From NCBI GenBank assembly GCA_012512925.1, contig JAAZDE010000053.1, forward strand, positions 1 through 34,198: a stretch of 34,198 nucleotides of DNA, in the 5' to 3' direction. Position numbers and translations under genes: made by a program. Position 1 is the stretch's first letter, and the number at the start of each line of letters is the position of its first letter. This DNA is from Desulfuromonadaceae bacterium. GTDB lineage: Bacteria > Desulfobacterota > Desulfuromonadia > Desulfuromonadales > JAAYDE01. Below, piece by piece: positions 1 through 16,238 of this stretch. The notes beneath the pieces are model-generated. The model ran no database searches, was not told where the DNA came from, and saw nothing but the letters and a program-made list of their open reading frames with translations.

Positions 1-861
1 AGCGTTTTCATGGATTATTCCGACGGCGAGAAACAGACCTCGGCGATGTTCGGCGAATCGGGCGTTTTTCTGGCGCCCAAGCACGCCGACTTCGTCTCCC
101 GTTTTATCCAACACTCAAGCAAAAAGGACAGCATCATTCTGGATTGCTTCGGGGGCTCCGGCAGTACCGGCCATGCGGTCATCCAACTGAACCGGGAAGA
201 TCGGGGTGATCGAAAATTTGTACTGGTGGAGGTGGGCGATTATTTCGATACGGTGCTGAAGCCGCGAATCTGCAAGGCCGTCTATGCACCGGCCTGGAAG
301 AACGGCAAACCGGCCCAGCACGGCAAGGGAATTTCCCAATGCATTACCTGTCTCCGCCTCGAATCCTACGAGGACGCCCTCGACAACATCACCTTCGAGC
401 CGGTCGATGAGCAGGCTAGCCTTCCGTTTGACGATTACGTCCTCAGCTACATGCTCGATTTCGAAACCAAGGGGAGCGACACCCTGCTGAACGTCGCCAA
501 GCTCGATTCCCCCTTCGACTACACCCTTCGCCGCCACGGCAAGGACAAGCCGCTTCCCGTCGACCTGCCCGAAACCTTCAACTACCTGATCGGCCTGCAC
601 GTCGCCACCCGCCGGGTGTACGACAACAGCGGCATCCGCTACCTGGTCTATCGCGGCAAGGCCGAGGGCCGGGCGACGGTGGTGATCTGGCGCACGACAC
701 GGGGCTGGGAAGAGAAAAAGTTCGAGGCGGACCGGGCATTCGTCCTGGCTCAGAAACTGACCGAAGGGGCCGAGGATGTGCTGGTCAACAGCGACAGCTT
801 TATTCCCGGTGCGCGTTCCCTTGATCCGGTTTTCAAACGCCGCATGTTCAACGGGGAGTGA
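1..861 (+). CDS. Type III-like adenine-specific DNA methyltransferase (Mod), C-terminal part
   Basis: This open frame runs in from the left edge, so the start and the catalytic DPPY-type motif, which precedes motif I in beta-class enzymes, lie outside the window. The S-adenosylmethionine-binding motif I, DCFGGSGSTG, is encoded near bases 145-174 and is followed by a strand ending in FVLVE, as in type III Mod and related N6-adenine methyltransferases. About 230 further residues form a C-terminal region, probably for target recognition or contact with the helicase partner. The stop codon overlaps or nearly touches the next gene, a Res-like helicase, so the two should be translated together. By family the protein would modify host DNA to protect it from its partner nuclease. 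Whether the missing half is intact cannot be judged here. Confidence 0.85.
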   Translation, partial: SVFMDYSDGEKQTSAMFGESGVFLAPKHADFVSRFIQHSSKKDSIILDCFGGSGSTGHAVIQLNREDRGDRKFVLVEVGDYFDTVLKPRICKAVYAPAWKNGKPAQHGKGISQCITCLRLESYEDALDNITFEPVDEQASLPFDDYVLSYMLDFETKGSDTLLNVAKLDSPFDYTLRRHGKDKPLPVDLPETFNYLIGLHVATRRVYDNSGIRYLVYRGKAEGRATVVIWRTTRGWEEKKFEADRAFVLAQKLTEGAEDVLVNSDSFIPGARSLDPVFKRRMFNGE

Positions 862-866
862 TCGTC

Positions 867-3800
867 ATGGCGCGACCAAGCAACGGAGCTGTCACGGCCA
901 ACCCCACAACCACCAACGGAACCTACGTCAAGCTGGAGCAACGCCTGGTGCTGGCGGCCTGGTGCTGCCACCTGCTCGGTTACGACGACAACAAGGCGAT
1001 GCTGGCCAACCTGCGGGAGGTCGAGGAGGGGTTCGACCCCAGCGGACCCTCCTTTCTTATCCTGGCGATCCTGGCCCGCGGCTCCAAGTGCCTGGTGCCG
1101 CGCGACGATCTGCTCCGCTACGACGCCAACATCCGTTCCCACCTGGTCCATTTCAACCGCCACCGCAGTGAGCCGTTGCGGCTGCGCTATTTTCAGCATC
1201 TCGCCCTGCTGCTGACGGAATTGCTGCTCGACCGGCTCTGCAACCATGAGGCAAATCTGCGCCGCGACCTCAACGATTTTGTCGCCCGGCGCAATGCCCG
1301 GCGCGCCGTCATGGACCCGCAGGACCAGAAATTCAGTCCGGAGGACCTGACCAAGCTGGCTTTCTGGATGGCCACGGGCAGCGGCAAGACCATCCTCATG
1401 CACTTCCACTATCGTCAATACCTCCATTACCTGAAAAAGCCCCTCGACAATATCCTGCTGGTCACTCCCGACGAGGGCCTGTCCCAGCAGCATCTGGAAC
1501 AGATGACCGCGGCCGGGATTCCCTGCAAGCGTTTTGCCCTTGAGGCCAGCGGCCTGGAAACTTCCGAGAAAAATACGGTGCGGGTCATCGAGATCACCAA
1601 GCTGGTGGAGCAGAAGAAAGGCTCCGGGGTCAGCGTACCGGTGGAGGCCTTTGAGGGGAACAATCTCATTTTTGTCGACGAAGGGCACAAAGGTGCGAGC
1701 AGCGAGGCGGGCAAGTGGATTGCCAACCGCGAGAAGCTTGCGGAGACCGGTTTTACCTTCGAATACAGTGCCACTTTCGGGCAGGCCATGACAACGGCCC
1801 GCGACGACGCCATGACCCGCGAGTACGGTAAGGCCATTCTGTTCGACTACTCGTACAAATATTTCTACGGCGACGGCTTTGGCAAGGATTTCGAGGTGCT
1901 CAACCTGCGCCGTGAAACCGGCGACGAGCAGACACGGATACTGTTATTAGCCAATCTGCTGGCCTTTTATGAACAGAAGCGCACTTTTGAAACCCGCAAC
2001 GCTGAGATGCTCCGCTACCATCTGGCCGATCCGCTCTGGATTTTTGTCGGCAGCACGGTCAACAAATCCAAAGACAATAAACAGGCCAGGGAATCGGATG
2101 TCCTCACGGTGGTGAAGTTTCTCGACGCCTTTCTGCGCAACGAGCAGGGCTGGGTACAAAAGGGGATCGGCCGCCTTCTGGCCGGTGACAGCGGCATTGC
2201 CGACAACGGCATGGACCTTTTCGCGGGCCGTTTCAGGCTGCTGACCGGCTGGAGTCGCGACGCCGGGACTATTTACCAGGATCTGCTGGAGCGTGTCTTC
2301 CATACAGGCTCCGGCGGCACCCTCCATATCGGCGACATCAAGGGAAAAACCGGCGAACTGGGACTCAAGGTGAGCGGTGCGGAAAACTATTTCGGCCTGG
2401 TCTATATCGGCGATACGGCCAGCTTCAAAACACTCATCGGCGAGCAATGCCCGGAAGTCGAGGTCGAGGAGGACCGCATCGCCGAATCGCTGTTCGAAAA
2501 CATCAAAAAGCCGGATTCGCCCATCAATATCCTTATCGGCGCCAAGAAATTCATGACCGGCTGGGACAGTTGGCGGGTTTCCAACATGGGGCTGCTCAAT
2601 ATCGGCCGCAGCGAAGGGACCGAGATCATCCAGCTATTCGGCCGTGGCGTGCGCCTGCAGGGGAAGGAGCGCAGTCTGAAACGCAGTTCCGCCCTGCCCG
2701 GTGTTCATCCCGCCGGCATCGAGGTGCTGGAGCGATTGAATATCTTTGCCGTGCGGGCCGATTACATGGTGCAGTTTCGCGATTACCTGGAGCGTGAGGG
2801 GATTGACCCTGGCGGCTTCGTGGAACTGCCACTGCCGATCCGGGCCAACGATGCATTCCTGAAAAAGGGGCTTTTGGCCCCCCGTTTGCCGAAAGAGAGC
2901 GTTTTCGCGAACAGTGAACGGTTCCTGCTCGACTGTGACGAGGCAGCCAGGGTGACCCTCGATCTCTCGACCCAGGTGGAGCGTTTGGGCAGTTCCGGCG
3001 GCGGTTACCAGAGCGGGAATTTCCTGCAGGGAGAGACCAGGAGAATTCCGGCTGATCAATTGCCCTGGCTCGATTGGGAGGGGCTTTACCTGGCGATGCT
3101 GGCCCACAAGGAGGAACGGGGCTTTCAGAATCTTGTCATCCGTCCGGAGCATCCCCGGCAGGTACTGACCGCCGAGCCGGACCTTTACAGTCTGATTTGC
3201 GATGAGGCCTTGCTGAGGCCGAGTACCTCCGCGCAAGGGAAGCGGCTGCAGGATACGGCGGCCGGAATTCTGAAAAAGTATCTGGAGCGGTTCTATCGCA
3301 TCAGGCAGCAGCGGTGGGATTCGGAACGGATGTTTTATGCTCCCCTGTGCCGCGAGGATGAAAACTTCCAGGATTACAAAGTCCGGGTGCCACGCTCCGA
3401 GACCACCCTTATCCAGGATATTTTGGAGACCATCGAGGATGGGAAACGTATCTACGAAGAAAATGTGGCCGTGCCGCCCACCCTCCACTTCGACAGGCAT
3501 CTTTTTCAGCCGCTGCTGATTCAAAAAGGGAACACTATAAAGTCTTCACCACCATGTCTCAACGAAAGTGAGCAGAACTTTGTCCGGGACCTGACAGACT
3601 ATTGCCATTCAAATCCCGAGGAACTGCAAGGGAAAGAGCTGTTTCTGTTGCGCAACCTGAGCAGGGGCAAGGGGATCGGCTTTTTCGAGGGCAGCGGGTT
3701 CTATCCGGATTTCATTCTCTGGGTGACCAAAGGGAAAAAGCAGCGCTTGATATTCATTGAACCGCACGGGATGCTCCACGAGGACCATCCGGCCATCAAT

Positions 3801-4073
3801 CCCAAAGTCAACCTGCACAAAAAATTACAAAAGCAGATGGCTGCGGTATTGGAAAAATCCAGGGCAAAAAACCTGACCGTCGATTCATTTATTGTTTCCC
3901 GAACGCCTTACGATGATTTGCGAAAGAAAGTGGTTGATAAATTCGGCCCCTGGAGCCGGGCGAGATTTGCGGGGGCGCATATACTTTTTCCGGACGAAAC
4001 GGATCATTCCTACCTCAAGCACATTCTTGGTGCTGGTACGACTCAAACACCGGTTAAGGGAGAAAGTGATTGA
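867..4073 (+). CDS. Type III restriction enzyme Res-like DEAD/DEAH helicase with C-terminal PD-(D/E)xK-like nuclease
   Basis: The ATG at 867 is preceded by GGGGAG eight bases upstream. A GTG at 858 overlapping the upstream stop is possible but has no ribosome site of its own. The 1068-residue protein has Walker A ATGSGKT at about 169-175, a DEGH Walker B box at 271-274, SATF (motif III) at 301-304 and QLFGRGVRL (motif VI) near 589-597, an SF2 helicase/translocase core. Near the C terminus (about 947-968) is FYPDFILW followed by RLIFIEPHG. This matches the PD-(D/E)xK nuclease pattern of type III Res subunits, except that the usual Lys of ExK is His. It lies directly behind the Mod fragment and overlaps the next gene by four bases. 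I infer the ATP-dependent cleavage subunit of a restriction system; active cleavage depends on whether the ExH variant is functional. Confidence 0.88.
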   Translation: MARPSNGAVTANPTTTNGTYVKLEQRLVLAAWCCHLLGYDDNKAMLANLREVEEGFDPSGPSFLILAILARGSKCLVPRDDLLRYDANIRSHLVHFNRHRSEPLRLRYFQHLALLLTELLLDRLCNHEANLRRDLNDFVARRNARRAVMDPQDQKFSPEDLTKLAFWMATGSGKTILMHFHYRQYLHYLKKPLDNILLVTPDEGLSQQHLEQMTAAGIPCKRFALEASGLETSEKNTVRVIEITKLVEQKKGSGVSVPVEAFEGNNLIFVDEGHKGASSEAGKWIANREKLAETGFTFEYSATFGQAMTTARDDAMTREYGKAILFDYSYKYFYGDGFGKDFEVLNLRRETGDEQTRILLLANLLAFYEQKRTFETRNAEMLRYHLADPLWIFVGSTVNKSKDNKQARESDVLTVVKFLDAFLRNEQGWVQKGIGRLLAGDSGIADNGMDLFAGRFRLLTGWSRDAGTIYQDLLERVFHTGSGGTLHIGDIKGKTGELGLKVSGAENYFGLVYIGDTASFKTLIGEQCPEVEVEEDRIAESLFENIKKPDSPINILIGAKKFMTGWDSWRVSNMGLLNIGRSEGTEIIQLFGRGVRLQGKERSLKRSSALPGVHPAGIEVLERLNIFAVRADYMVQFRDYLEREGIDPGGFVELPLPIRANDAFLKKGLLAPRLPKESVFANSERFLLDCDEAARVTLDLSTQVERLGSSGGGYQSGNFLQGETRRIPADQLPWLDWEGLYLAMLAHKEERGFQNLVIRPEHPRQVLTAEPDLYSLICDEALLRPSTSAQGKRLQDTAAGILKKYLERFYRIRQQRWDSERMFYAPLCREDENFQDYKVRVPRSETTLIQDILETIEDGKRIYEENVAVPPTLHFDRHLFQPLLIQKGNTIKSSPPCLNESEQNFVRDLTDYCHSNPEELQGKELFLLRNLSRGKGIGFFEGSGFYPDFILWVTKGKKQRLIFIEPHGMLHEDHPAINPKVNLHKKLQKQMAAVLEKSRAKNLTVDSFIVSRTPYDDLRKKVVDKFGPWSRARFAGAHILFPDETDHSYLKHILGAGTTQTPVKGESD

Positions 4074-7000
4074 GCGACAAGCAGTTAGGTCTGTTCGATG
4101 AGCAGGTTGATGTTCAGGCGAGCGTAAGAAACATCTCCGACTGGCCCGATATTGACCGCTTTCCCCATAATTTCAATAGCCGTCAGGTCGAGGAGATCGT
4201 CCTCAAAGACGTGGCCGGCAGTGTCTCCCCCCTGGTCGTTACCGGCTTTACTTCCCTCGATTATGTCATTGATTTCCTTGCGGACCTTCCAGCTGAATCT
4301 CCAAAAGAATTCCGGATTTTGATCGGTAGTGAACCGACCCTTTCTCGTCGATCCCAATACAGCATCAATAAAAAAAACCTCCCTCAGGAAATGATCGACT
4401 ACTGGCTGGATGCCGGTATCTCGTTACGGCTCTGCTACAAGATTGTCCTGGTTATGGAGATGATCAGGACAGGCCGTTTGCAGAGCCGCTTTATTGCCGA
4501 CGATCGGCGGAAGCTTCATTGCAAAATTTATGTTGGAGATGAAGCGGTGACCCTGGGTTCCAGCAACTTCAGTTTCACCGGACTGAGAAAACAGCTGGAA
4601 GCCAACGCCAGATTCCATTGTCGAAAAGAACCCAAACGTTACCTTGAGGCCCGACAATTGGCCGAGAATTATTGGAAGCTTGGCGACGATTACAATGGAT
4701 ATCTGTTCGAGTTGTTGGAACAGTTGCTGAAAATCGCCACCTGGAAAGAGGCGCTTGGTCGAGCCTGCGGTGAATTGCTTGAAGGAGACTGGGCGCAGAA
4801 ATACATTTGCACCCACTTGGCGGGGGCCGGCAAGGAACTTTGGCCGTCCCAGAAGGTCGGCATCGCCCAGGCACTCTGGATGGTGGAAAATGTCGGCAGT
4901 GTCCTGATCGCCGATGCGACCGGTTCGGGCAAAACCCGGATGGGAGCATATCTGCTGCGCGCCGTTATGGACAGAATCTGGAGCACTGGACGCGCCCGAA
5001 AAGATATCACCGCGCTGGTCTGCCCCCCGGGGCCCGTCGAGGAATCGTGGAAGCGGGAAGCTATTTCTTGTGGACTGCCTTTGGTCGCTTTGTCACATGG
5101 CGTGCTGAGTCAGCAGAAGTCCGGCCGGCACGAGGATGTCATGCAAAGTATCCGCCGGGCTCAATCGCTCGCCATCGATGAGGCTCACAACTTTTTGAAT
5201 CCCAAATCGTCCCGGACCCGCGGCCTGCACGGCAACATGGCCGACGTGGTGGTCATGTTCACCGCCACGCCCATCAATCGCGGGGTGCATGATTTGCTGA
5301 TGATCGTCGATCTGCTGGGGGCCGACAACCTGGAGGATTCGGCCCTGGAGCTGTTTGACCGGCTGGCCCGGCGTCTGGGGAATCAGAGCGGAAAATTCAT
5401 GACTACCCAAGAAGAGCGCCTGGTCATGCAAAAGGAGGTGCAGCGCTTCACCCTGCGCCGCACCAAGAAGATGCTGAATGCCCTGGTGGACTGCGATCCC
5501 GACGCCTACCGGGACGATCTCGGCAGCCGCTGCCGCTATCCCGAGCATCGCTCCCGGACCTATTCCACCGGAGAGACCGAGACCGACAAGAAGCTCGCAT
5601 CCCGAATCCGCGAGTTGGCCGGGAACCTTAAGGGGCTGGCGAATCTGCGCTCCGGCCTGGAGCTGCCGGAATCGCTCAAGGGCCTCCTCGATGAGGATGT
5701 TTATATCCGAGGCCGGCTCCAAGGTGCCCGCGGGTTGGCTTTGTACAACCTGATGTCGCGGCTGCGCTCTTCCCGTGCCGCGTTGTTGGAACACTTGCTC
5801 GGGACCGAGACCACGGCTAAAGAGTTCGGCATCACCGGCTTCATCAAACCGGAGGAGACGGGCAACGTTCTGGGGCGGTTGCGGGAGAGTGCCGGTCAGG
5901 TTCAACCCAGTTCCCTGGCGAAAAAGCTGCCGGTCTGGCTGGCCGACGGGGAGGCGCACCGACTGGCGGTCGAGGAGGAACTCCGAATCTACCAGGAGAT
6001 TTTGGTGCTGGTCGGACGGATGTCGGACAGCCGGGAACGCGCCAAGGCCCGCCGTCTTTCAGAATTGTTGAAAAGATATCCTTTGGTCATCGCTTTCGAC
6101 AGCTGTCTTATCACCCTGGAGGTGATCCGGAACCTGATCCGGGAGGAAAATGACCATGGGCAGGTCCTTGTCGCCACCGGTGCCAAGGAACAGGAGAGAA
6201 AAAAGGTCAACCATTTGTTCGCGCTTGGTTCGAAGGCGAAAGGGGTCGTCGCGCTTTGTTCAGATGCCATGTCGGAGGGACTCAACCTCCAGCAGGCCTC
6301 GGCAGTCCTGCTGCTGGACATGCCGAGTGTCATCCGCATCGCTGAACAGCGGGTTGGGCGGGTGGACCGTATGAACAGTCCGCATCCGGAGATCGAGGTC
6401 TGGTGGCCCCTGGATAGTGGAGCTTTCTCCCTTAAGGCGGATCGGAAATTTTTTCAAAGATATAATGAGGTCAAGGATATCCTCGGCTCAAATCTGCCGC
6501 TTCCCGAGAATCTGATTCCGGAGGAGTTACAGGCCCATGCTCCCGCTACGGTGGAAGAGATGATCCAAGAACTCCATGAACTGGAGAGAAAAGGGGAGAC
6601 CTGGGATGGGCTCCGGGATGCCTTCCAGCCGGTCCGGGAACTGCTCGAGCCGGTATGCGGCCTGGTACCGGAAATGGTTTACAGGGATGTTCGAGGCTCC
6701 CGGGCCCGGGTGGTGTCAACCGTGAGCCTGGTAAGAGCCGAACGCCCCTGGGCTTTCATGGCTGTCGCCGGGGCTGAGCAAGGGGCGCCGAAATGGGTTC
6801 TGATCGAGGGACTGCAGGGGCGGTTGGTGACCCATCTGGAGGATGTCGTCACCCGGTTGCGGCATTTTCTGAAGGACGATCCGGAAAACCGGCCGATGGA
6901 CAAGAGAGCCTCCGAACTGATCGCACGGTTTCTTCACCTTGTGCTGAAAGCCGAGGTGTCACTGCTTCCCCGGAAGAAACAGCGGGCACTGGAGGAGATG

Positions 7001-7357
7001 AGACAGGTTTTGGGTCACTATCTCCGGCAGGCCGAGCAGGCCGGAGATCGGGAGCGGATCGCGGTGCTGAAAGGGGTGCTGGCACTTCAGGAGGTGCCTC
7101 TTGACGACCAGGAGCGGCCCGATCTCGATGCGGTGGCCGAGGGGTGGCTCGATCTGATCCGGGAGACCTGGTATCAGAAGTTGATCCAGAGGCGCCGCTT
7201 CAAGCCGCTGCGGCTGCGGGACATCCGCAAGGAACTCAAAAGCCGGCCGATTCCCCTTGGCCGGATTGCCGAGGTTTTTTCCTCCATCCCCCTGTCGCAG
7301 CCGATTCACACCCGGATCATCGCCGCCATAGTGGGGTTGCCGGATAGTGCTTCCTGA
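4070..7357 (+). CDS. Phospholipase-D-like domain fused to SNF2-family helicase, predicted anti-phage protein
   Basis: Translation likely starts at TTG 4070, inside a TTGA overlap with the upstream stop and after an AAGGGAGAAAG ribosome site. The protein has 1095 residues. The N-terminal part carries a PLD-type half-site: HCK at 150-152 followed by GSSNFSFTGL at 163-172, the arrangement of HKD nucleases. A superfamily 2 helicase follows: Walker A ATGSGKT at 283-289, DEAH at 370-373, TATP at 398-401, and a C-terminal lobe with EGLNLQQA and QRVGRVDRMNS, typical of SNF2 proteins. About 300 C-terminal residues have no domain I recognise. Only one HxK half-site is evident, so a nuclease would probably need to dimerise. 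It ends the mod-res operon, and I infer that it senses or degrades invading DNA together with it. This is not a standard type III subunit. Confidence 0.85.
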   Translation: MSDKQLGLFDEQVDVQASVRNISDWPDIDRFPHNFNSRQVEEIVLKDVAGSVSPLVVTGFTSLDYVIDFLADLPAESPKEFRILIGSEPTLSRRSQYSINKKNLPQEMIDYWLDAGISLRLCYKIVLVMEMIRTGRLQSRFIADDRRKLHCKIYVGDEAVTLGSSNFSFTGLRKQLEANARFHCRKEPKRYLEARQLAENYWKLGDDYNGYLFELLEQLLKIATWKEALGRACGELLEGDWAQKYICTHLAGAGKELWPSQKVGIAQALWMVENVGSVLIADATGSGKTRMGAYLLRAVMDRIWSTGRARKDITALVCPPGPVEESWKREAISCGLPLVALSHGVLSQQKSGRHEDVMQSIRRAQSLAIDEAHNFLNPKSSRTRGLHGNMADVVVMFTATPINRGVHDLLMIVDLLGADNLEDSALELFDRLARRLGNQSGKFMTTQEERLVMQKEVQRFTLRRTKKMLNALVDCDPDAYRDDLGSRCRYPEHRSRTYSTGETETDKKLASRIRELAGNLKGLANLRSGLELPESLKGLLDEDVYIRGRLQGARGLALYNLMSRLRSSRAALLEHLLGTETTAKEFGITGFIKPEETGNVLGRLRESAGQVQPSSLAKKLPVWLADGEAHRLAVEEELRIYQEILVLVGRMSDSRERAKARRLSELLKRYPLVIAFDSCLITLEVIRNLIREENDHGQVLVATGAKEQERKKVNHLFALGSKAKGVVALCSDAMSEGLNLQQASAVLLLDMPSVIRIAEQRVGRVDRMNSPHPEIEVWWPLDSGAFSLKADRKFFQRYNEVKDILGSNLPLPENLIPEELQAHAPATVEEMIQELHELERKGETWDGLRDAFQPVRELLEPVCGLVPEMVYRDVRGSRARVVSTVSLVRAERPWAFMAVAGAEQGAPKWVLIEGLQGRLVTHLEDVVTRLRHFLKDDPENRPMDKRASELIARFLHLVLKAEVSLLPRKKQRALEEMRQVLGHYLRQAEQAGDRERIAVLKGVLALQEVPLDDQERPDLDAVAEGWLDLIRETWYQKLIQRRRFKPLRLRDIRKELKSRPIPLGRIAEVFSSIPLSQPIHTRIIAAIVGLPDSAS

Positions 7358-14582: not shown

Positions 14583-16238
14583 ATGTCCCAACAACTTGAT
14601 TTCACCATGGGTGGACTGCTGGAGGATATCACCCGGAGGTTCCCCGACAATGACGCCCTGGTCTACCCCGACCGGGGCCTGCGCTACAGCTACCGGGAAT
14701 TCAACGCGGTGTGCGATCGCATCGCCAAGGGCTTGATGGCCCTGGGCATTGAAAAAGGCGAGAACGTCGCCATCTGGGCCACCAACGTCCCCGAGTGGGT
14801 CATTCTCGATTGGGCCACCGCCAAGATCGGCGCCGTTCTGGTCACCGTCAACACCCTTTACAAGACCAAGGAACTGGAATACATCCTCAACCAGTCCGAC
14901 GCCACCACTCTCTTTCTGATCCGCGCCTTCAAGGATACCGATTACGTCCAAACCCTTTACGAGGCCGCTCCCAAAATCAAAGAACTCCCCTTCGGAAAGG
15001 CCGGCAACGAAAATCTCCCCTTCCTCAAGAGGGTGATCTTCATCGGCGATGAAACCCCCGCCGGAATGATGAACTTCCGCGATCTGGAAAAACTGGGGGA
15101 GCAGATTTCCGATGCCGACTATCAGACCCGCAAGGATTCCCTTGAGCGGCACGATGTGATCAACATGCAGTACACCTCCGGCACCACCGGTTTCCCCAAG
15201 GGGGTGATGCTGACCCACCACAATGTCATCAACAACGGCTATTTTATCGGCGAGTGCATGAAATTCACCGAAAAAGACCGGCTCTGCATTCCGGTGCCGT
15301 TCTTCCACTGCTTCGGCAGCGTGCTGGCTATCATGGCCTGCGTCACCCACGGTTCCACCATGGTTCCTGTGGAGTTTTTCAAGCCGGAACAGGTGCTGCA
15401 GACCATCGAGAAGGAGAAATGCACCGCCGTCCATGGGGTGCCGACCATGTTTATCGCCCAATTGGATCACCCCAACTTTCACCGTTACGATCTTTCCACC
15501 CTGCGCACCGGGATCATGGCCGGTTCGGTCTGCCCCATCGATGTCATGAAGCGTGCCGTAAAGGACATGCATGTCACCGAAATCACCAGTGTCTATGGTC
15601 TTACGGAGGCCTCTCCCGGCATTACCCAGACCCGCACCGAAGATTCCATCGAACTGCGGGTTTCCACGGTAGGCCGCACCCTGCCGGGGGCCGAGGTCAA
15701 GATTGTCGACATCGAAACCGGCGCCGCGCTGCCGCCGGGCAAACAGGGGGAACTGTGCGCCCGCGGCTACATGGTCATGAAGGGCTACTACAAGATGCCG
15801 GAGGAAACCGCCAAGGTCATCACCCCCGACGGCTGGCTGCATACCGGGGATCTGGCGGTGATGGACAGCAACGGCTATTTCAAGATCACCGGGCGCATCA
15901 AGCAGATGATCATTCGCGGCGGGGAAAATATCTATCCCCGGGAGATCGAGGATTACCTCTATACCCATCCCAAGATTTCCGACGTGCAGATCTACGGCGT
16001 GCCCGACCGCAAGTACGGAGAGCAGGTGATGGCGGCTATCAAACTCAAGGAGGGGATGACCTGCACCGAACAGGAGATCAAGGATTTCTGCAGGGGGCAG
16101 ATCGCCAACTACAAGATTCCCTATTACGTCAAGTTTGTCGATGAATACCCGATGACCGCCAGCGGCAAGATCCAGAAATTCAAACTGCGGGAGATGGCCA
16201 TTCGGGAACTGAATCTCGAAGAGGACAAGAACTCCTGA
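14583..16238 (+). CDS. AMP-forming acyl-CoA synthetase (fatty acid-CoA ligase family)
   Basis: The enzyme activates a carboxylic acid to an acyl-adenylate and then to acyl-CoA. The 551-residue protein carries the P-loop YTSGTTGFPKGVMLTH near 197-212, the adenine motif YGLTEASPG near 338-346, and the hinge GWLHTGDLAVMDSNGYFKITGR near 418-439 followed by GGENIYPREIE. The catalytic C-terminal Lys is in TASGKIQKFKLRE. The overall pattern is that of FadD/AlkK-type medium- to long-chain ligases; the exact chain length cannot be read from sequence. ATG 14583 follows GGAGGA nine bases upstream. The gene opens an operon with an M24 peptidase 21 bases downstream and is preceded by an attenuator-like leader. 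Confidence 0.9.
   Translation: MSQQLDFTMGGLLEDITRRFPDNDALVYPDRGLRYSYREFNAVCDRIAKGLMALGIEKGENVAIWATNVPEWVILDWATAKIGAVLVTVNTLYKTKELEYILNQSDATTLFLIRAFKDTDYVQTLYEAAPKIKELPFGKAGNENLPFLKRVIFIGDETPAGMMNFRDLEKLGEQISDADYQTRKDSLERHDVINMQYTSGTTGFPKGVMLTHHNVINNGYFIGECMKFTEKDRLCIPVPFFHCFGSVLAIMACVTHGSTMVPVEFFKPEQVLQTIEKEKCTAVHGVPTMFIAQLDHPNFHRYDLSTLRTGIMAGSVCPIDVMKRAVKDMHVTEITSVYGLTEASPGITQTRTEDSIELRVSTVGRTLPGAEVKIVDIETGAALPPGKQGELCARGYMVMKGYYKMPEETAKVITPDGWLHTGDLAVMDSNGYFKITGRIKQMIIRGGENIYPREIEDYLYTHPKISDVQIYGVPDRKYGEQVMAAIKLKEGMTCTEQEIKDFCRGQIANYKIPYYVKFVDEYPMTASGKIQKFKLREMAIRELNLEEDKNS

What the first reader, a model, noticed from the sequence alone, without database searches (positions are those of the whole stretch)
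1..7357. Restriction cassette extended by a PLD-SNF2 fusion protein
Directly seen: a type III-like methyltransferase end, a Res-like helicase-nuclease and a 1095-residue protein with an HxK phospholipase-D half-site ahead of an SNF2 helicase, with overlapping or near-overlapping junctions. Type III systems normally have only Mod and Res. The third gene brings a second motor and a second nuclease fold, which recalls the restriction-like and DISARM-type defence systems but matches neither gene set fully as far as I can recall. The 300-residue C-terminal region of the fusion has no domain I can name. This is the best candidate in the window for an under-described defence system.
Basis: partly seen in the sequence, partly recalled or inferred. 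Interest (0 to 1): 0.65.

Follow-up and report, generated by a model that had tools for sequence, protein, structure and literature searches.

The report
Restriction pair beside stand-alone nuclease-motor gene
A bacterium carries an ordinary type III-like restriction pair immediately followed by a separate gene for a DNA-motor protein fused to a nuclease; everywhere else we found this third gene it stands without that pair, so the three are most likely neighbouring defences rather than one new machine.

Summary
The three genes are real and tightly packed: a Mod C-terminus (contig edge), Res (858-4073) and a 1095-residue protein "P3" (4070-7357, 4-bp TTGA overlap with Res). P3 has a single, complete HKD nuclease motif (H150, K152, D157), an SNF2 motor confirmed by structure prediction, and a C-terminal part without a PDB match. 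The trio as a system is not supported. None of 35 other loci of this Res lineage carries P3, and none of 19 other P3 loci (15 with upstream sequence visible) carries Mod or Res. The window's own Res sub-clade (51-54% identity) is two-gene Mod-Res. P3 homologs stand alone or behind unrelated genes, several in defence islands (E2/E1-JAB operon, NERD-UvrD, AlbA_2). Best reading: a type III-like R-M pair plus a self-contained HKD-SNF2 nuclease-translocase, inferred to be antiphage, that has come to lie at the operon's 3' end. P3 reaches no family cut-off (DpdE, DrmD, PLD-helicase), so it is a divergent new member of a known kind. Caveat: half of the wider Res tree does carry a third gene, a DrmD-like SNF2 helicase without PLD; P3 could be filling that slot here, but one case cannot show it.

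The parts
1..861 (+). Mod (type III-like N6-methyltransferase), C-terminal 286 codons; gene runs off the contig start, N-terminal 219 codons at end of contig G000:C167
   Evidence: PDLC03646 MTase_III 1.1e-45; N6_N4_Mtase; N-part on C167:22384-23034, 61% to L119 Mod
858..4073 (+). Res (type III-like SF2 helicase with C-terminal PD-(D/E)xK-like motif PDF..EPHG at residues 950-970); start GTG 858 or ATG 867
   Evidence: PDLC03654 REase_III 4.2e-145; ResIII 3.9e-12; motif conserved in its sub-clade
4056..4073 (+). Res/P3 junction: AAGGGAG ribosome-binding-like sequence and 4-bp TTGA start/stop overlap (translational coupling inferred)
   Evidence: sequence read directly
4070..7357 (+). P3: 1095-aa HKD(PLD)-SNF2 fusion protein, TTG start
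4070..4774 (+). P3 residues 1-235: single-HKD PLD nuclease domain, motif H150-K152-D157 + GSSNF 163-167
   Evidence: PLDc_2 0.005 in window copy, 6e-5 in L034 and 2e-4 in L074 homologs; invariance
4775..6616 (+). P3 residues 236-849: two-lobe SNF2 motor (Walker A GSGKT 285-289, DEAH 370-373, TATP 398-401, QRVGRVDR 760-767)
   Evidence: structure model aligned to SNF2 remodellers and to ZorD, Z 16-17
6617..7354 (+). P3 residues 850-1095: C-terminal three-strand + helical region, no significant PDB or family match
   Evidence: model pLDDT 81; Foldseek no match E<=0.001, best VIA-align Z 5.0; PHROGs none

Best explanation
Two separate defence modules lie end to end. Module 1 is a two-gene type III-like restriction-modification system: Mod methylates one strand of a recognition site; Res, an SF2 motor with a PD-(D/E)xK-like tail, cuts DNA lacking the mark. 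Module 2 is P3, a self-contained nuclease-translocase: its SNF2 motor is predicted to run on double-stranded DNA, its single-HKD PLD domain to dimerise and cut DNA, and the C-terminal 245 residues are the likeliest sensor or clamp. P3 is inferred to act alone against invading DNA. It has become the last gene of the R-M operon by insertion and borrows its transcription and, through the TTGA overlap, its translation. Shown: the gene layout, motifs, SNF2 fold, and the absence of conserved linkage in either direction. Inferred: nuclease activity, dimerisation, antiphage role, independence of function.
For: Res side: 35 other loci of the lineage, none with P3; the window's Res sits in a 100/100-supported six-member clade (51-54% identity) in which the other five are plain Mod-Res, four with 8.5-10 kb visible downstream. 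P3 side: 19 other homologous loci (37-71% identity), none with Mod or Res; 15 have upstream sequence visible. P3 occurs alone between housekeeping genes (L072, L177-L181) or after unrelated genes: multiubiquitin/E2/E1-JAB/DUF6527 (21-bp gap, L065), NERD-UvrD (22 bp, L073), AlbA_2 (128 bp, L068), an AAA_14/DUF4143 ATPase (L071). It is patchy: 8 of 136 genomes of the order, with a truncated copy beside a transposase (L036) and a 75-residue remnant (L037). Catalytic motifs and purifying selection argue for activity. SNF2 fold Z 16-17, including antiphage ZorD at Z 16.3.
Against: The 4-bp overlap and the ribosome-binding-like sequence show a tight operon in this genome, which fits co-function too. 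About half of the wider Res lineage has a third SNF2 gene, so a motor partner is normal for relatives of these enzymes. No phage or plasmid record carries a close P3, and in genus g182 all four sampled genomes with this handle set have it, which a housekeeping role would also give. No activity has been measured.
Confidence: 0.62

Rival explanations
1. P3 is a working third subunit: it has taken the place that a DrmD-like SNF2 helicase holds in related Mod-Res systems, giving a type III-like system armed with an extra HKD nuclease-translocase that uses Mod's methylation mark to tell self from non-self.
For: An SNF2-Mod-Res trio is frequent in the lineage (15 of 35 loci), with SNF2 once downstream of Res as here (L093). 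The window lacks that SNF2: upstream of Mod on C167 lie an HTH/SocA-Panacea gene and a 128-aa ORF. TTGA coupling. HKD-Swi2/Snf2 effectors paired with an N6-MTase are described in Type-2 BREX-related systems (PMC12839542).
Against: The SNF2 partner is confined to the other half of the Res tree; the 13-row clade holding the window has none. P3 and that SNF2 share only short helicase motifs. P3 occurs without Mod-Res wherever else it is found. Only one instance.
Confidence: 0.18
2. P3 is not a defence protein but a DNA-repair or transcription-recycling motor (RapA-like) with a nuclease domain.
For: RapA is the best PDB sequence match (8e-8) and tops Foldseek. In genus g182 it was found in four genomes, standing alone.
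Against: Patchy occurrence, truncated remnants, different sites even within that genus, and repeated neighbours from known defence families. RapA has no PLD nuclease.
Confidence: 0.12
3. The locus is a degenerate or partial DISARM or BREX-related system.
For: P3 scores weakly with DrmD, DpdE and PLD_Helicase models.
Against: All far below curated cut-offs; no DUF1998/MZB (DrmB-type) and no DUF499 found in the own genome.
Confidence: 0.03
4. The Res-P3 junction is an assembly chimera.
For: Draft assembly of 213 contigs; reads not available.
Against: A precise 4-bp overlap with a ribosome-binding-like sequence is unlikely at a chimeric join; GC and GC3 agree on both sides (0.57/0.72 and 0.58/0.70).
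Confidence: 0.03

Closest known systems
Type-2 BREX-related (BR) HKD + Swi2/Snf2 helicase (PMC12839542); NCBIfam NF042964 and PADLOC PLD_Helicase look like models of such proteins (my inference)
   Same: N-terminal HKD nuclease followed by an SNF2 motor in one protein, proposed restriction effector with an N6-MTase in the locus
   Different: P3 scores 32 bits against a cut-off of 1100; no DUF499 ATPase in the genome; C-terminus matches nothing; P3 stands alone elsewhere
PADLOC C3a139 'HKD+Snf2'
   Same: Same domain order; recognises distant P3 relatives on Calothrix and Thermococcus plasmids
   Different: P3 itself only E 0.009
Dpd system proteins DpdE (SNF2) and DpdK (PLD)
   Same: Best NCBIfam hit of P3 is DpdE (62 bits); homolog PLD regions hit DpdK
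   Different: Separate proteins in Dpd; 62 bits against a cut-off of 500; 7-deazapurine genes not examined
DISARM DrmD (SNF2) and DrmC (PLD)
   Same: SNF2 and PLD activities next to a methyltransferase
   Different: 48 bits against 610 for DrmD; DrmC 0.009; no DrmB-type MZB domain in the genome
Type III R-M (Mod-Res; long-Mod group PDLC03646/PDLC03654)
   Same: Mod and Res of the window belong here
   Different: An unrelated gene, P3, follows Res in this genome only
SNF2-Mod-Res trio on plasmids and chromosomes (e.g. E. coli pEC316_2, L091)
   Same: Same Mod-Res families plus an SNF2 motor
   Different: That SNF2 is DrmD-like (PDLC02619, 2.5e-196), has no PLD match, usually precedes Mod, and lies in another clade of the Res tree

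Membership tests
Type III restriction-modification | Mod: amino-MTase with type III Mod profile | tested here: met
   PDLC03646, 1.1e-45 C-part, N-part 1.3e-45 on C167; middle of gene not assembled
Type III restriction-modification | Res: SF2 helicase plus C-terminal PD-(D/E)xK nuclease, adjacent to Mod | tested here: met
   PDLC03654 4.2e-145; PDF..EPHG motif (K replaced by H), the same throughout its sub-clade
Type III restriction-modification | Cleavage needs two head-to-head unmethylated sites and ATP | not testable with these tools
   biochemistry
DISARM | DrmA, DrmB (DUF1998/MZB) core genes | tested here: not met
   no MZB (PF09369) match in the genome; no DrmA-like gene among the three (one search shows only helicase-motif matches)
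DISARM | DrmD by curated cut-off | tested here: not met
   NF038317 47.9 of 610 bits; NF038318 24.9 of 950
Type-2 BREX-related system | DUF499 ATPase | tested here: not met
   PF04465 absent from the genome
Type-2 BREX-related system | HKD-SNF2 helicase of the NF042964 family | tested here: not met
   32.4 of 1100 bits
Type-2 BREX-related system | DUF3780 and DUF1156 MTase | not tested
   no genome search made for these two families; the Mod present matches type III MTase
Dpd | DpdE by curated cut-off | tested here: not met
   NF041062 61.9 of 500 bits
HKD-SNF2 nuclease-translocases (kind) | complete HKD motif plus SNF2 motifs I, II, III, VI in one chain | tested here: met
HKD-SNF2 nuclease-translocases (kind) | HKD domain adopts the PLD fold and dimerises | tested here: inconclusive
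   fold comparison was dominated by the SNF2 core; PLD part of the model has low-confidence stretches
SNF2-Mod-Res trio | DrmD-like SNF2 beside Mod-Res | tested here: not met
   none in the window; P3 is a different family; upstream of Mod on C167 no SNF2

The most novel reading that the evidence does not exclude
P3 has been captured into the helper-motor slot of a type III-like system, so that a Mod methylation mark now licenses two nucleases, the Res PD-(D/E)xK and an HKD-SNF2 translocase. The lineage would then show repeated, convergent recruitment of SNF2 motors to Mod-Res (DrmD-like SNF2 in one half of the tree, HKD-SNF2 here).
Probability: 0.15. Interest if true: 0.6.

Novelty: new member of a known kind. 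Interest (0 to 1): 0.4.

Why it matters
It corrects a tempting reading: tight operon spacing in one genome is not evidence of a multi-gene system. It brings out a divergent HKD-SNF2 family (Desulfobacterota, Bacteroidota) that reaches no NCBIfam cut-off and only marginal PADLOC scores and may be a one-gene antiphage nuclease-translocase, and it shows that about half of one type III lineage, including conjugative E. coli and Klebsiella plasmids, carries a DrmD-like SNF2 helicase with Mod-Res, which can be tested directly in laboratory E. coli.

Tried and rejected
Viral contigs and phage records held no relative of P3. Structure comparison of the C-terminal region gave no significant Foldseek hit (best E 1.1) and VIA-align Z at most 5.0, helical overlaps only; this does not show a new fold. 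A match of the C-terminus to RapA's C-terminal domains, suggested by the BR-helicase literature, was not seen. GC and GC3 did not mark P3 as foreign. An empty-site comparison failed: the right flank (tenA, methyltransferase) is present in G002 without R-M genes, but the left flank could not be tied across the contig gap. PADLOC hits of P3 to DrmD, DpdE, HmaA and ZorD were rejected as shared helicase motifs (short stretches, scores far below cut-offs where these exist). Paper searches found no description of P3 or of the SNF2-Mod-Res trio in the held library; subscription papers are not held, so this is weak.
Full report
What is there. The window is one whole contig (G000:C185, 34,198 bases) of a 2.6-Mb, 213-contig genome whose close P3-bearing relatives are Desulfuromonadaceae-like metagenome genomes. 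Three plus-strand genes fill bases 1-7357. Gene 1 is the C-terminal part of a type III-like Mod; its first 219 codons lie at the very end of contig C167, and nothing else in the genome encodes the missing 1.6 kb. Gene 2 is Res, 1071 residues, with PDF..EPHG near its C-terminus. Gene 3, called P3 here, has 1095 residues. The Res stop and the P3 start share TTGA at 4070-4073, behind AAGGGAG.

What P3 is. Profiles give an SNF2 core and only a weak PLD match, but homologs score better on the PLD, and the motif H150-x-K152-x4-D157...GSSNF is complete and conserved. One HKD per chain means, from established knowledge of such enzymes, that two chains are needed for an active site. AlphaFold2 gave a usable model (pLDDT 73, pTM 0.63, 13 sequences). 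Residues about 235-850 align with SNF2 remodellers and with ZorD of Zorya at Z 16-17. The last 246 residues, predicted alone (pLDDT 81), matched nothing. Synonymous change is saturated while dN is about 0.22, so P3 is a maintained protein. It reaches no curated cut-off: DpdE 62 of 500 bits, DrmD 48 of 610, PLD antiphage helicase 32 of 1100; PADLOC HKD+Snf2 gives E 0.009. The last model does recognise more distant PLD-SNF2 proteins of Calothrix, Thermococcus and G144, so P3 is a separate branch.

Is the trio a unit? From P3's side: 19 other loci were read, at 37-71% identity. G098, G036, G002, G037, G007, G080 and G082 came from the same order; L069-L075 from other Desulfobacterota, proteobacterial and Bacteroidota genomes; G274 and four genomes of genus g182 from the phylum. 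None has Mod or Res. In four the upstream side is cut by the contig end. Neighbours instead are housekeeping-type genes (L072, L177-L181), or genes of other defence families: multiubiquitin, E2, E1-JAB and DUF6527 in L065; a type IIG-like methylase, an HSP70-like protein and a NERD-UvrD protein in L073; AlbA_2 in L068. In four loci besides the window P3 starts within about 130 bases of a co-directional upstream gene of a defence-type or ATPase family (L065, L068, L071, L073), so settling behind another operon looks common, though the sample is small.

From the Res side: 35 other loci were read, from the order, class and phylum and from annotated plasmids. None has P3. A tree of 32 Res proteins puts the window in a six-member clade, support 100/100, with L116, L119, L147, L148 and L149, all plain Mod-Res. 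This clade lies inside a 13-row clade without any SNF2 partner. The other half of the tree is different: 15 loci there carry an SNF2 helicase of 950-990 residues that PADLOC calls DrmD (2.5e-196), normally just upstream of Mod, once downstream of Res. It shares only helicase motifs with P3.

Mechanism. Mod-Res should work as a type III enzyme. P3 should translocate on double-stranded DNA and cut with its HKD domain; the target cue is unknown. The nearest described functional model is the Type-2 BREX-related HKD-Swi2/Snf2 effector, which is proposed to restrict DNA that the partner N6-MTase has not marked (PMC12839542). That analogy is the best support for the rival in which P3 uses Mod's mark, but P3 elsewhere has no constant methyltransferase beside it, so I hold self-contained action more likely (0.62 against 0.18). 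None of these activities was measured.

Known or new. DISARM and BR membership fail on tested features: no MZB/DrmB-type domain and no DUF499 in the genome. The kind, an HKD nuclease fused to an SNF2 motor, is known; the family is not named in the libraries searched. Hence a new member of a known kind, with the three-gene system not supported.

Noticed in passing
L091:2852-12372 (E. coli pEC316_2); also L076, L077, L079, L090, L092, L093, L111-L113, L115, L144-L146, L150: A DrmD-like SNF2 helicase adjoins the long-Mod type III pair in 15 of 35 loci, including conjugative E. coli/Klebsiella plasmids; it is largely clade-specific on the Res tree. I found no paper describing this three-gene arrangement in the held library.
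   Followed up: partly
L086:3253-6039, L088:3063-6008: In Athalassotoga and Priestia plasmids the same Mod-Res pair is preceded instead by a UvrD helicase with a PD-(D/E)xK nuclease domain.
   Followed up: no
L032:9157-16107, L040:1-2714, L037:9299-12609: A shared chromosomal site downstream of an mqnA-like gene holds, in three genomes of the order, a truncated PLD-helicase + AlbA_2 + P3, a contig-truncated PLD-helicase of another family, and a 75-residue P3 remnant respectively: a likely defence-gene exchange site.
   Followed up: partly
window:1 and G000:C167:23038: Both contigs end inside Mod and the middle 1.6 kb, which should hold part of the catalytic and target-recognition region, is absent from the assembly; strain variation at the recognition domain would explain the break.
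   Followed up: no
G344, G391, G433, G543 (L178-L181): Four genomes of one genus carry a 37-40% P3 homolog as a lone gene at at least three different sites.
   Followed up: no
window:858-4073: The catalytic K of the Res PD-(D/E)xK motif is H (EPHG) in the window's clade and several other members, whereas others have DPKG.
   Followed up: no
L075:9950-13173: In a Bacteroides genome the P3 homolog is split into two ORFs overlapping by 4 bases, between the motor lobes; real split or frameshift not decided.
   Followed up: no
window:14562-16817 and 14583-16238: Long antisense-overlapping ORFs (751 aa on -, 551 aa on +); the minus-strand one has no Pfam match.
   Followed up: no
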